NCBI GenBank assembly: GCA_023249255.1
Contig: JAHFCY010000227.1
Coordinates: forward strand, 1-5,301
DNA length: 5,301 nt
Source of the DNA: Candidatus Lindowiibacteriota bacterium
Lineage (GTDB): Bacteria > Lindowbacteria > 2-12-FULL-62-27
Direction: 5' to 3'
A program made the position numbers and the translations under genes. Below the pieces are notes generated by a model. The model saw nothing but the letters and a program-made list of their open reading frames with translations. It was not told the DNA's origin and searched no databases. Every line of letters starts with the position of its first letter. Positions within the stretch are counted from its first letter, which is position 1. This document shows positions 1 through 5,301 of the stretch, one piece after another.

Positions 1-120
1 CGAAGCAAGTTCATGCGACGGCCGGCAAGAGCAACGTATTCGGGACATTTTCGAAAGCGCTGTTTGGATGCACGATTCCCATGGATCTGGGGCCCGGAGA
101 CACATTTATGCTGGATGTCG
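1..120. repeat. Left copy of an exact 120-bp terminal direct repeat
   Basis: Bases 1-120 match 5182-5301 without a mismatch. The offset is 5181 bp, a multiple of three, so the coding frame is the same in both copies. The repeat lies inside the lectin-like module and is not flanked by inverted repeats or transposase sequence, so it is not an insertion-sequence end. Its length is of the kind a de Bruijn-graph assembler leaves on a circular path (k minus 1 for k of 121); that origin is an inference. Confidence 0.97.
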
Positions 121-938
121 GATACGCCCAACTGATCCTCCAGCAGGGATTCCGGATCCAGCCGAAGACTTATTCATCCTTTTTACATTTCGGCTATTTT
201 CTGCAGACCGACACTTTTTCTACGGAAGTGGGCGCTCGCGGGTATCGGTTTACGAGCGGAGGACAGATCACAACAAATCCTAATTTGACGCACTTCATCG
301 ACCGGCTCGATACATCCGGGCCCGTCACGATCATGTCGTTCCAATCTTTTGGGGTCACCACCGAATCGATCAGGGGACTAACTGCGGAGGTGGGCCGGGA
401 TGGTACGCAAAAGATAACCGTTCGTCGAAGCGACGGAGCGGTATATGTTCTCGAAGTCGATGATGACCGATATACAAACCACGTCGTTCATGTGGACATG
501 GGCGGCCAGCCTACGTCTCCGTCCAACGATGGTTTCGATTACTTTTTTGACACGGTGGTGGCGATTGGGAAAAGCCTGACGACTATCCCTGTCGCCAGGA
601 TCGACAACCCCGGAGATTCTGGCGTGACCGATGTTTCCGGAACCCAAGAGGTCGTCATCACGGTTGCGAATTGTTTCCCAACTGCGTCAAACTGTCAGCC
701 GGTCGACTGGACAATCACCGCTATTCCCATCAGTGGCGGGGCAACTGTCCAAATCGCGTCCGGCTCCGGGAGTGTCACGCGATTCAAAGCTGCAGATTGG
801 ATCACGACAACGACGCCGAACGGCGAATATATTTTGACGCTGACCGCACTCAATTCCGGTGGGCTTACGGCCATAGACACAGCTAAGGTCAGAGTCAACA
901 ATGATGGTGTGTCACCGAGCATCACCCTCGGAAACCGC
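3..938 (+). repeat. Repeat unit R1, C-terminal 312 codons (subtype A)
   Basis: This is a unit lacking its first 36 codons, which reappear at 5076-5183 if the ends are joined. The lectin-like module runs to 611 and the Ig-like module from 612 to 938 (109 residues). Visible landmarks are the G-C-T-I-P motif (Cys codon 69-71), the A-E-V-G-R-D-G motif, the D-D-R-Y-T segment, and a F-D-Y-F-F-D-T-V-V-A strand just before the module border. The Ig-like module carries the C-x6-C pair (672-674 and 693-695) and ends with N-N-D-G-V-S-P. Its closest relative is R5: a hand alignment gives about 82% identity over the complete lectin-like module (junction included) and about 67% over the Ig-like module. Confidence 0.9.
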
Positions 939-3900
939 GTGCTGTTCCGCGAGACGTTCGACACTGCGGCGTCAATCCAGAACAAGGACATCATCGACAC
1001 CTTCCAGACTGGATTTAACAATTATGAGACGATTGGCGTCCAAGCAAAACAGGTTGTGGGATATACCTTCTACGGAAACAACGCCGGTGCGATATCACGA
1101 GTTTTCTTGGGTTGCACCATTCCTCTCAGTCTGGGCGGCGGAGACACTTTCCAACTAGATATTGGACACGCCAGAGTTCAGCGTATAAACACCACTTCAG
1201 GCAGTTCATCGGCGCGCATGTTCTTCGGATATTTCCTCCAGTCGGACAAGTTTTCTACGGAAGCAGGCGCCCGCGGATACAAGGCGGTGGCCGAAGGCCC
1301 GGTCAACAACATGCCGAATGATTTGACGGTCCGCATTGAGCGATTGGATACGGCCGGACCCATCACCCTGTTTTCCAGTCAACGCTTCGGAATCGCCGTC
1401 AACAGCGTGACGGGATTTGCCGCAGAGGTCGGCCGGGAGGGGGATCAGAAGATCACGGTTCGGCGCGGAAGCGCCATCGATGTGTTTGAAATCGCAGATG
1501 ACCGCTGGACAGACAGAGTCGTGCATGTCGATGTGGGAGCATCACCCGGCATCGACCTTGAACCGTTCAATATTTATATAGACACCGTCGTCGCCACCGG
1601 AAAAGGATTGAGCCCCGTGCCCTTTGCCCGAATCGACGATCCGGATGGCGACACGATCGTGGAATTGTCCGGCATGCGTGCGATTCTCATTACGGTCGTC
1701 AACAGTTACCCAACAATCTTCGACCAGCGTCCCGTCGATTGGTCCGTCACGGCACGGCCGCTTTCGGGCGGGGCCGATATCCTCATCGTCAGCGGTAGCG
1801 GTGGTGTCACGAAACAAAAAGCGGCTGATTGGGTGACGACGACCGTGCCGAACGGCGACTATATACTGACGCTCACGGCGGTCAATTCCGGCGGACTGAC
1901 GGCCAGCGACACCGTCCTTGTCCGTGTGGCAAACGAAGGCGTGTCGTCTGCCGGTCAGGTCGTCAGCCGCGTCCTCTTCCGGGAAGTCTTCGACACCGCG
2001 GCGGCGATACAGAACAAGGACATCATCGACACGTTCCAAGCGGGGTTCAACAATTATGAGACGATGGGAGTCCAGGCAAAACAGGTGCTGGGATATACCT
2101 TCTTCGGAAACTACGATGGCGCCATATCGCGCGTTCTGCTCGGTTGCACCATCCCGCTCAATCTCGGGATCGGCGACAGTTTCCAACTCGATATCGGCCA
2201 CGCAAGAGTCCAGCGAATCAACACAAGCAGTTCGGTGAGTTCATCCGCGCGGATGTTCTTCGGCTATTTCCTGCAAAGCGACAAATTTTCGACGGAGGAG
2301 GGTGCCCGAGGGTATCGAGCCGTGGCCGAAGGCCCTCTCAACACCTCCCCGAACGATCTGACGGTTCGTATCGACCGTCTCGACACGGCCGGGCCGATCG
2401 CGTTGTTTTCGAGCCAGCGGTTCGGCCTTGTGGTCACGAGCGTTACGGGCTTTTCAGCGGAGGTTGGTCGGGAGGGAGAGCAGAAGCTATCCGTTCGGCG
2501 GGGTGGGGTGACCGATGTCTTCGAAGTCTTTGATGACCGATACACCGACCGTGTCGTTCACATCGACGCAGGCGTTGCGCCCGGCATCCAGCTTGAGCCG
2601 TTCAATTTCTTTTTCGACACAGTCATCGCGAGCGCCAAGGGCATCCATCCGATTCCCGTCGCCCGGATCGACGCGCCGTCGGAAGGAGCCACAGTCAGGG
2701 GATTGACCGATGTCGAGGTCACTGTAGCAAACTGTTTCCCGACGGTGTTCGATTGTTTGCCGGTCGACTGGTCGGCGACGGCAACGCCAGTCGGCGGCGG
2801 AAAGGACATACCGATTGCAAGCGGCGCCGAGAGCGTGACGAAGCGGAAGGTTGCCGCATGGGAGACCACAGAAGTTCCGAACGGAGAGTATATCTTGACG
2901 CTCCGGGCGGTGAATTCGGGCGGAGCGGAAGCGGTGGACACGCTCCGGGTGAGGGTGGAGAATGAGGGCGTATCGCCGACGGCGAGCGTCGTGAGCCGCG
3001 TGATTTTCCGAGATGCCTTCGATACGCCGCAGTCGTCCTTAAATAAGAACATCATCGATACGTACGGCACGGACTTTGCGGGGTTTGAGACGATTGGAGT
3101 GGCCGGGCAACAAGTGGTAGCGTTCGCCGCCCGTTCAAACGTCTTTCAAGCCTTTTCCCACATCTTGCTCGGATGCACGACCCCCATGACCCTCGGCGCC
3201 GGTGACACATTCAAATTGGACATCGGCTATGCGCGCCAAGAATTGACGCCCGGAAGCGACCGGAACCTGACGCACTCCTCGTTCTTGATATTCGGATATT
3301 TCCAGCAAAAAGACGTCTTTTCCATGGCATCAGGTGCAAGAGGGTATCGCCTGATGTGCGGCGGCCAATTCACGTCGCCACCTGTGAACACGACATATTC
3401 GATCGATCGGCTGGACACCGCCGGTCCCGTAACGATCTTTTCGGTGGCAAACGGGCAATCTACAGAGGACATCCGAGGATTTATGGCAGAGGTGGGCCGC
3501 GAAGGAGCGCAGACATTAAAAGTGCGAAGAGTTGGGGGTGGGGTCGACATTCTGGAATTTGAGGACGACCGATACACGGACCATGTGGCACACGTCGACA
3601 TGGGCGGCTCGCCCACGTCATTCCCTTCCGTCAGTTTCCAATATTGGTTTGACACCGTCGTTGCCGAGGGTAAGACCTTAAATCCGGTGCCATTCGTCCG
3701 GATCGACACGCCCACCGGAGGGACATTGTCCGGTGCCGCCGACATTATCCTCACTGTGGTCAACTGTTTCCCGACCGCATTTGACTGCCTCCCGGTGGAC
3801 TGGACCGTCACGGCTCGGCCAGTTGTCGGCGGTCGCGACATCCAGATCGTCTCCGGCTCGGGAAAGATTGAGCGTTTCAAAGTGGCGGAGTGGCAGACCA

Positions 3901-5300
3901 TCTCCGTTCCCAACGGGGAGTATGTCCTGACGCTTACGGCCGTCAATTCGGCCGGACTGATCGCGTCGGATACGATTCTGGTACGCGTGGAGAACGAAGG
4001 CGTGTCGCCGGGGGCATCCCCGATGAGTCAAGTGCTGTTCCGGGAAGTCTTCGACACGCAGGAGGCGTTCTACAACCGGGGCATCATGGATCAATTTTTG
4101 TCAGGGAAATTCAGTTCTGAAACAATCGGCATCGATGCGAAGCAAGTCCATGGGACGGCGGGCAAGAGCAACGTGTTCGGGACTTTTTCGAAGGCGATGT
4201 TCGGATGCACGATTCCGATGGCTTTGGGACCGGGCGACACGTTCCAGTTGGACGTGGGACACGCCCAACTGATTCTCCAGCAAGGATTCCGGATCCAGCC
4301 GAAGACGTATTCATCTTATTTGGATTTCGGATATTTTCTGCAAAGCGACAAGTTCTCGACGGAGCTGGGGGCGAGGGGGTATCGGGTCAAGTTTGGAGGC
4401 GAGATCACATCGACACTGAATCTGACCCATACGATCGAGCGGCTCGACACGGGCGGTCCGATTGTTTTGTATTCACTGCAATCATTCGGGATCACGACGG
4501 AATCAATTCGGGGGTTGAGCGCGGAAGTTGGGCGAGACGGCGCGCAGAAGGTGACGGTGCGCCGAAACGACGGCGCGGTCTACACGTTAGAGGTGGACGA
4601 CGACCGATATACGGACCATGTTGTCCACGTGGACATGGGGGGAGAGCCGACATCTCCGTCTAACGATGGTTTTGATTACTTTTTTGACACAGTCGTGGCC
4701 ATCGGAAAGACCCTCACACCCATACCCACCGCAAGGATAGATACTCCTGCCGATTCGGTTGTGACACAGGTGTCCAGCACGCAGGAAATCGTCATCACCG
4801 TGGCCAACTGTTTTCCGACCGCGACGAACTGTCAAATGGTGAATTGGGCCGTAAGCGCAACACCCGTGGCCGGAGGGGGAGTCATCCAGGTCGTATCGGG
4901 ATCGGGAAGCGTCACGAGATTTAAAGCGGCGGACTGGCGTACCACGGACGTTCCAAATGGGAAGTACATCCTCACTCTCACGGCTGTGAATTCGGCTGGC
5001 CTTACGGCCATGGATACGACATCGGTCATCGTGGAAAACGAAGGGGTGTCACCGGGAGTAGTTGCCGCCGATCGCGTTCTGTTCCGGGAAGTCTTCGATA
5101 CGCAGGAGGCGTTCTACAACCGGAACATGATTGATATCTGGCTGTCCGGGAAATTCAGTTCTGAAACGATTGGAATCGACGCGAAGCAAGTTCATGCGAC
5201 GGCCGGCAAGAGCAACGTATTCGGGACATTTTCGAAAGCGCTGTTTGGATGCACGATTCCCATGGATCTGGGGCCCGGAGACACATTTATGCTGGATGTC
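3..5300 (+). CDS. Interior fragment of a giant tandem-repeat surface-type protein (lectin-like plus Ig-like modules), open at both ends
   Basis: This frame runs through the whole window with no stop (1766 codons) and has neither its own start nor its own end. Paralogous units compared codon by codon differ mostly at third positions, which supports this frame as the translated one. The protein is a chain of 343-348 residue units starting at residues 313, 657, 1000, 1344 and 1692, preceded by an incomplete unit. Each unit has a roughly 237-residue beta-rich module with a G-C-T-x-P motif and an A-E-V-G-R motif, then a roughly 108-residue Ig-like module with a P-N-G-x-Y-x-L-T-L motif. I do not recognise a named family for the full unit; the two fold calls are inferred from motif pattern. 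Composition (Thr, Ser, Gly, Val, Asp rich, Lys poor) and architecture suggest an exported adhesin or surface-layer protein. No signal peptide, membrane helix or anchor is present in this part. The frame also stays open across the circular junction. Confidence 0.93.
939..1970 (+). repeat. Repeat unit R2, complete, 344 codons (subtype B)
   Basis: The unit opens with V-L-F-R-E-T-F-D-T. Its lectin-like module spans 939-1643 (235 residues) and its Ig-like module 1644-1970 (109 residues). The G-C-T-I-P Cys codon is at 1113-1115. It shares with R3 the I-Q-N-K-D-I-I-D-T-F-Q start and the H-A-R-V-Q-R-I-N-T segment. A hand alignment with R3 gives about 79% identity over the lectin-like module but only about 60% over the Ig-like module. 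It is the only unit in which both cysteines of the Ig-like C-x6-C pair are missing: Ser is encoded at 1704-1706 and Gln at 1725-1727. The trailing linker reads N-E-G-V-S-S rather than the usual N-E-G-V-S-P. Confidence 0.9.
1644..1970 (+). other. Ig-like module of R2 lacking the paired cysteines
   Basis: In R1, R3, R4 and R5 the Ig-like module begins its second strand region with N-C-F-P-T and has a second Cys seven residues later. Here the same positions are Ser (1704-1706) and Gln (1725-1727). All other landmarks are kept, including P-V-D-W, V-P-N-G-D-Y-I-L-T-L-T-A-V-N-S and the closing D-T-V-L-V-R-V strand, so the module is a variant and not a broken copy. The joint loss suggests that the two cysteines form a disulfide in the other units. 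The Ig-like assignment rests on strand pattern only. Confidence 0.7.
1971..2999 (+). repeat. Repeat unit R3, complete, 343 codons (subtype B)
   Basis: The unit opens with V-L-F-R-E-V-F-D-T. The lectin-like module covers 1971-2678 (236 residues) and the Ig-like module 2679-2999 (107 residues). The G-C-T-I-P Cys codon is at 2145-2147 and the Ig-like Cys pair at 2733-2735 and 2754-2756. It pairs with R2 in the lectin-like module, apart from a one-codon length difference in the Ser-rich loop after R-I-N-T. Around the Cys pair of the Ig-like module it matches R4 better (F-D-C-L-P-V-D-W in both), which hints at mosaic ancestry. The Ig-like module is two residues shorter than in R1, R2 and R5, the difference lying before the first strand. 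Confidence 0.9.
3000..4031 (+). repeat. Repeat unit R4, complete, 344 codons (divergent subtype C)
   Basis: The unit opens with V-I-F-R-D-A-F-D-T. The lectin-like module covers 3000-3713 (238 residues) and the Ig-like module 3714-4031 (106 residues, the shortest). The conserved motif is G-C-T-T-P (Cys codon 3174-3176). The Ig-like Cys pair is at 3765-3767 and 3786-3788. It has no close partner in the window: its lectin-like module mixes features of the other types, with N-K-x-I-I-D-T near the start as in R2/R3 and R-S-N-V-F resembling the K-S-N-V-F of R1/R5. It carries an extra cysteine (3357-3359, in L-M-C-G-G) seen in no other unit, and A-Q-T-L where the others have Q-K after A-E-V-G-R. Confidence 0.9.
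4032..5075 (+). repeat. Repeat unit R5, complete, 348 codons (subtype A)
   Basis: The unit opens with V-L-F-R-E-V-F-D-T-Q-E-A-F-Y-N-R, identical in protein to the start of the next unit. The lectin-like module covers 4032-4748 (239 residues) and the Ig-like module 4749-5075 (109 residues). The G-C-T-I-P Cys codon is at 4206-4208 and the Ig-like Cys pair at 4809-4811 and 4830-4832. R5 has the same length (348 codons) as the R1 unit reconstructed across the window ends, and the two align without gaps, so they look like a relatively recent tandem duplication. It is the most complete single copy from which to model the subtype A domain structure. Confidence 0.91.
5076..5300 (+). repeat. Start of a further R1-type repeat unit, first 75 codons, cut by the window end
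   Basis: This piece begins the next unit after R5 with V-L-F-R-E-V-F-D-T and includes the G-C-T-I-P motif (Cys codon 5250-5252). Its last 120 bases equal the first 120 bases of the window. If the ends are the same locus, this piece and 1-938 make one 348-codon unit; if not, it is the beginning of a sixth copy whose sequence is locally identical to R1. Only the N-terminal third of a lectin-like module is present. Confidence 0.9.
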
Positions 5301-5301
5301 G
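5182..5301. repeat. Right copy of the exact 120-bp terminal direct repeat
   Basis: This is identical to bases 1-120 and ends exactly at the last base of the window. The corresponding stretch of the sister unit R5 (from about 4138) differs at many third codon positions, so exact identity is not simply the normal level of similarity between units in this array. It marks either circular closure of the assembled path or two nearly identical R1 copies in a longer gene. Confidence 0.97.

What the first reader, a model, noticed from the sequence alone, without database searches (positions are those of the whole stretch)
1..5301. Endless ORF: the window closes into a 5181-bp circle with no stop codon
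The + frame starting at 3 is open to the last base, and joining the identical 120-bp ends gives a circle of 5181 bp = 1727 codons, so the frame re-enters itself. The circle holds exactly five repeat units (348+344+343+344+348 codons). It has no start context, stop, origin or second gene. The likeliest cause is a collapsed repeat loop from a giant gene, which would hide a protein much longer than 1727 residues. A real circular DNA or RNA with perpetual translation is possible in principle but much less likely.
Basis: partly seen in the sequence, partly recalled or inferred. Interest (0 to 1): 0.75.

Follow-up and report, generated by a model that had tools for sequence, protein, structure and literature searches.

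The report
Collapsed repeat loop of giant gene
The endless reading frame is almost certainly an assembly loop: a short-read assembler most likely folded the near-identical repeats of one very long bacterial surface-protein gene onto each other, so the circle is an artefact but hides a real, unusually long lectin-like protein.

Summary
The window is the whole of contig C296 in a 366-contig draft genome. It has identical 120-base ends and closes to 5181 bp = 1727 codons without a stop, made of exactly five coding repeats. Repeats are 51-77% identical in protein and kept by selection. No replication gene, RNA gene or relative in plasmid, phage or viral collections was found.

The host is a Candidatus Lindowbacteria relative, from a phylum rich in giant genes. 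The same genome has a 5577-codon frame carrying a homologous domain, and six of 118 sampled contigs are open end to end. A named relative has a 22,286-codon frame that includes a tandem array of ~3.84-kb units, broken by a gap and the contig end.

Each repeat is a lectin-like domain (confident model of a homologue) plus an Ig-like domain. A toy de Bruijn assembly of a tandem array of the 5181-bp unit gave a 5301-base circular contig with 120-base ends at k = 120 with depth pruning and about seven copies, not with about four.

Best reading: a higher-order tandem repeat of a giant secreted lectin-like adhesin gene, collapsed by the assembler. A real circle would look identical but has no positive support. 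Read depth would decide.

The parts
1..5301 (+). Contig C296: frame open from base 3 to the end (1766 codons; 1727 when the ends are joined)
1..120 (.). 5' copy of the exact terminal overlap
5182..5301 (.). 3' copy of the exact terminal overlap
936..1967 (+). Repeat unit 1 (344 codons): lectin-like domain + Ig-like domain
1968..2996 (+). Repeat unit 2 (343 codons), 72% aa identical to unit 1
2997..4028 (+). Repeat unit 3 (344 codons), 52-56% to all others
4029..5072 (+). Repeat unit 4 (348 codons), 77% to unit 5
5073..5301 (+). Repeat unit 5, left part, up to the contig end
3..935 (+). Repeat unit 5, right part; with 5073-5181 it completes a 348-codon unit across the seam

Best explanation
The window is an assembly loop. 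The chromosome of this Candidatus Lindowbacteria-lineage bacterium most likely carries a giant gene for a secreted, modular surface protein. Part of that gene is a tandem array of a 5181-bp higher-order unit, and each such unit holds five diverged repeats of about 345 residues. Each repeat is a concanavalin/legume-lectin-like domain followed by an Ig-like domain. Copies of the 5181-bp unit are identical enough for a short-read assembler to merge them. The single-copy entrance and exit are then lost as low-depth branches, or left as contigs outside the bin, and the merged loop is written out as a contig whose ends repeat one assembly word. The frame never stops because the true start and stop lie outside the array. 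The protein probably acts outside the cell as a carbohydrate-binding or adhesive fibre. Shown: the coding repeats, their selection, their homology to a giant chromosomal protein, giant genes in this phylum, the fold of the homologous domain. Inferred: copy number, collapse, secretion, binding role.
For: Window = complete contig, and no other contig of the bin shares the sequence. C290 of the same genome has a 5577-codon frame, with coding on past a 10-N gap to the contig end; its domain at C290:16658-17479(-) is homologous (BLASTP 2e-7; profile-profile probability 90%). The domain family occurs in all three genomes of the phylum, and identical contigs name one of them Lindowbacteria, so the contig belongs to this genome; composition and codon usage are also typical. 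Six of 118 sampled contigs are open end to end. G001:C2 has a 22,286-codon frame with a tandem array of ~3.84-kb units, 78% alike, running into a gap and the contig end. In a toy de Bruijn assembly, about seven or more exact copies with branch pruning at one fifth of local depth give a 5301-base circular contig with 120-base ends at k = 120; about four copies do not; the five diverged repeats do not merge with each other at k >= 25. dN 0.16-0.47 against dS above 1.4 between units. Lectin-like model: pLDDT 90, Z 16-17 to ERGIC-53/Emp46p-type lectin domains.
Against: No reads, depth or assembly graph are available. No contig carrying the array's entrance or exit, a start codon or a stop was found in the bin. 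The assembler and its word size are unknown: two other exact end overlaps in the bin are 63 and 25 bases, not 120. The multi-kb array in the relative is only 78% identical between copies, whereas this model needs near-identical ones.
Confidence: 0.72

Rival explanations
1. A giant or large repeat gene holds the five-unit segment only once, but an exact repeat of about 120 bp (recent gene conversion or duplication between two like units) sits at both ends of it. The assembler closed the loop through that repeat. No multi-copy array is needed.
For: Neighbouring units of the same subtype exist (77% aa, up to 90% around the seam), so local exchange is plausible. Path-extending assemblers can write repeat-segment-repeat as one contig (established knowledge).
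Against: The longest exact match elsewhere in the circle is 24 bp. In the toy assembly low-copy cases break at entrance and exit instead of giving one self-overlapping contig. Contigs ending in the 120-bp repeat should then exist, and none is in the bin.
Confidence: 0.2
2. A real circular DNA (plasmid, excised circle) whose only content is a perpetual reading frame.
For: The contig is what a true 5181-bp circle would give, and the junction keeps frame and unit register.
Against: No replication, mobilisation or RNA gene. No relative among 72,556 plasmids, 50,697 phages or IMG/VR contigs. The domain is a chromosomal family of this phylum, present in a giant gene.
Confidence: 0.04
3. A DRT2/neo-like or rolling-circle-translated repetitive gene made by copying a template.
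For: The only likeness is a stop-free repeating frame.
Against: neo units are about 120 nt and made from a non-coding RNA next to a reverse transcriptase (PMC12039810). Here the repeats are 1.03 kb, diverged and under purifying selection as folded extracellular domains.
Confidence: 0.01

Closest known systems
Giant ORFs of Omnitrophota (PMC10066038), including some with laminin_G_3 and other adhesion domains
   Same: Very long extracellular, modular proteins in uncultured bacteria; lectin-like/adhesion domains; undercounted in draft genomes
   Different: Different phylum; the lectin-like domain here matches no Pfam family; here only a loop of the gene is seen
22,286-codon frame of Ca. Lindowbacteria RIFCSPLOWO2_12_FULL_62_27 (G001:C2:43827-110684, minus strand)
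   Same: Same phylum and family; giant frame with an in-gene tandem array of multi-kilobase units where the assembly breaks
   Different: Copies only 78% identical, so resolved; domains differ (Ig-like, VWA, FlgD_ig); no window-type domain found there
Short secreted lectin-like + TPR proteins of Lindowbacteria (~700 codons; e.g. G001:C37, G002:C106, G000:C12)
   Same: Homologous lectin-like domain
   Different: One domain, a closed frame of ordinary length, no tandem array
Direct-terminal-repeat circular contigs of metagenomes (CheckV, PMC8116208)
   Same: Identical contig ends used as the sign of a closed circle; false positives known
   Different: No viral or plasmid content here
DRT2 neo (PMC12039810) and stop-free circRNAs (PMC11263353)
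   Same: Reading frame that re-enters itself
   Different: Short units or RNA circles; no comparable machinery or size here

Membership tests
Giant (>20 kb) bacterial surface-protein gene | One frame longer than 20 kb | tested here: inconclusive
   The contig is only 5.3 kb and open at both ends; C290 in the same genome has a 5577-codon frame plus coding beyond a gap
Giant (>20 kb) bacterial surface-protein gene | Extracellular modular repeats | tested here: met
   Five repeats; lectin-like domain (by homology to a confident model) plus Ig/FN3/PKD-like domain
Giant (>20 kb) bacterial surface-protein gene | Signal peptide, start and stop of the gene | not testable with these tools
   Not in the contig; no flanking contig found
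Collapsed tandem repeat (assembly artefact) | Contig ends repeat one assembly word; no unique sequence | tested here: met
   120-bp exact ends on a complete contig; reproduced in a toy assembly
Collapsed tandem repeat (assembly artefact) | Read depth N times single-copy genes | not testable with these tools
   No reads
Circular plasmid or phage | Replication or packaging gene, or related replicon | tested here: not met
Concanavalin/legume-lectin-like fold | Lectin-type beta-sandwich fold | tested here: met
   Model of the homologous Lindowbacteria domain, pLDDT 90, Z 16-17; the window unit itself modelled poorly and joins by homology
DRT2 neo | ~120-nt template RNA beside a reverse transcriptase | not tested
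   Unit length of 1.03 kb and domain content already differ

The most novel reading that the evidence does not exclude
A genuine 5181-bp circular DNA in a Lindowbacteria-lineage bacterium with one perpetual frame, transcribed and translated round and round into lectin-like fibres of unlimited length.
Probability: 0.02. Interest if true: 0.95.

Novelty: new member of a known kind. Interest (0 to 1): 0.35.

Why it matters
Giant genes are undercounted because assemblers break or fold them. A self-closing, stop-free, repeat-only contig is a recognisable fingerprint of such a gene and could be used to scan draft genomes for hidden ones. Here it points to a lectin-like array in a barely sampled phylum. 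If at least five 5181-bp copies were merged, which depth pruning at one fifth would require, the array alone would exceed about 8,600 residues.

Tried and rejected
Relatives of the unit in IMG/VR, GTDB genomes by pattern scan, plasmids and phages: none. Flanks of the loop in the bin: only chance-level matches; the best, C236:241-266, lies in an unrelated gene in another frame. Fixing the assembler word size from other contig ends: inconclusive. Whole-unit structure from seven sequences: poor, only the Ig-like part usable. Promoter-like sites (11 against 2.4 expected) are probably repeated coding motifs, since several recur at unit spacing.

Full report
1. Observation. The frame from base 3 has no stop. 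The ends share exactly 120 bases, and the closed circle is 5181 bp = 1727 codons. The five units have 344, 343, 344, 348 and 348 codons. A stop-free run this long has a chance of about 1e-18 under the codon-position base composition. The window is the whole contig C296 of a 366-contig, 3.35-Mb draft genome, 88.7% complete. The end repeat is therefore a property of a contig, not of a cut-out.

2. The coding is real. Between units, third codon positions change most, and dN is 0.16-0.47 with dS above 1.4 (dS is near saturation, so only the direction is safe). Codon usage correlates with the rest of the genome (0.87; rank 85 of 217), and tetranucleotide composition lies inside the range of small contigs of the bin. 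Units pair as 1-2 (72% aa) and 4-5 (77%), with 51-56% otherwise. Unit 5 straddles the seam and resembles unit 4 most on both sides of it. So the join is in the correct register and subtype and is not a random misjoin.

3. Whose genome. The domain family is found in all three genomes of the phylum that are held. One is Ca. Lindowbacteria bacterium RIFCSPLOWO2_12_FULL_62_27: G001:C37 has the length (123,643) and the matching range of MFPR01000037.1. G002 matches bacterium isolate NC_groundwater_1274_Ag_S-0.2um_61_68 in the same way. The window's genome is in the same family by the tool's grouping. The tandem array itself was found only in C296.

4. Giant genes. C290 of the same genome has a 5577-codon frame, followed after a 10-N gap by a further 1296-codon open stretch, in another frame across the unsized gap, that runs off the contig. 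At C290:16658-17479(-) it carries a domain homologous to the window's unit, starting with the same FREVFDT motif. Six of 118 sampled contigs (C24, C33, C34, C313, C348, C361) are open from end to end; C313 and C348 match Ig-like families. In the relative, G001:C2:43827-110684(-) is open for 22,286 codons and runs off the contig at its 5' end. Its 5'-most 17 kb held are a tandem array of ~3.84-kb units, about 78% identical, ended by an 18-N gap and the contig end. Its 3' part holds Ig-like, VWA and FlgD_ig domains and a weak match to a type-IX-secretion signal domain.

5. Domain. A model of the homologous single-domain protein, built with 14 sequences including four window units, is confident (pLDDT 90). 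It matches legume-lectin-like carbohydrate-recognition domains (Foldseek 8e-8; Z 16-17 over about 190 residues at 3 A). The unit's second part matches Ig/PKD/FN3-type folds weakly. Carbohydrate binding and adhesion are inferred from fold only.

6. How the circle arises. In a toy de Bruijn graph the five repeats stay separate at k >= 25, so the repeats themselves do not make the loop. An array of about seven or more exact 5181-bp copies in unique flanks, with branches below one fifth of local depth removed, gave a circular 5301-base contig with 120-base ends at k = 120. With about two to four copies, or without pruning, the loop broke into linear pieces. This shows that the mechanism can give the observed contig; it does not show that it did. 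The word size of 120 was chosen to fit. A true circle would give the same contig.

7. Judgement. Collapse of a higher-order tandem repeat in a giant lectin-like surface-protein gene is best supported (0.72). Closure through a single shared 120-bp repeat is the main rival (0.2). A real circle is unlikely (0.04). The endless ORF is an artefact; the hidden gene is a new member of a known kind, giant bacterial surface proteins (PMC10066038, PMC11573180).

Noticed in passing
G001:C2:43827-110684 (-), loci L206-L209: A 22,286-codon frame in Ca. Lindowbacteria RIFCSPLOWO2_12_FULL_62_27, open at its 5' end at the contig edge, with a ~3.84-kb tandem array; among very long bacterial frames.
   Followed up: partly
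G000:C290, L026/L082/L083: 5577-codon frame plus a 1296-codon open stretch beyond a 10-N gap: a giant modular secreted protein with several FDT-type domains.
   Followed up: partly
L061, L065, L078, L115, L124, L125: Six contigs of 3.8-4.9 kb open in one frame from end to end, i.e. probably fragments of further giant genes.
   Followed up: partly
G001:C37, C20, C17, C4; G002:C106, C39; G000:C12, C247, C81: Lineage-specific secreted proteins of about 700 codons: lectin-like domain, several with TPR-like repeats after it; no Pfam family for the lectin-like domain.
   Followed up: partly
L068:6278-9359 (-): Two adjacent ~515-codon secreted-protein frames, 93% identical DNA over 1.44 kb: a recent tandem gene duplication.
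   Followed up: no
window, promoter scan (e.g. 994, 2026): 11 promoter-like sites against 2.4 expected, several recurring at unit spacing; probably repeated coding motifs.
   Followed up: no
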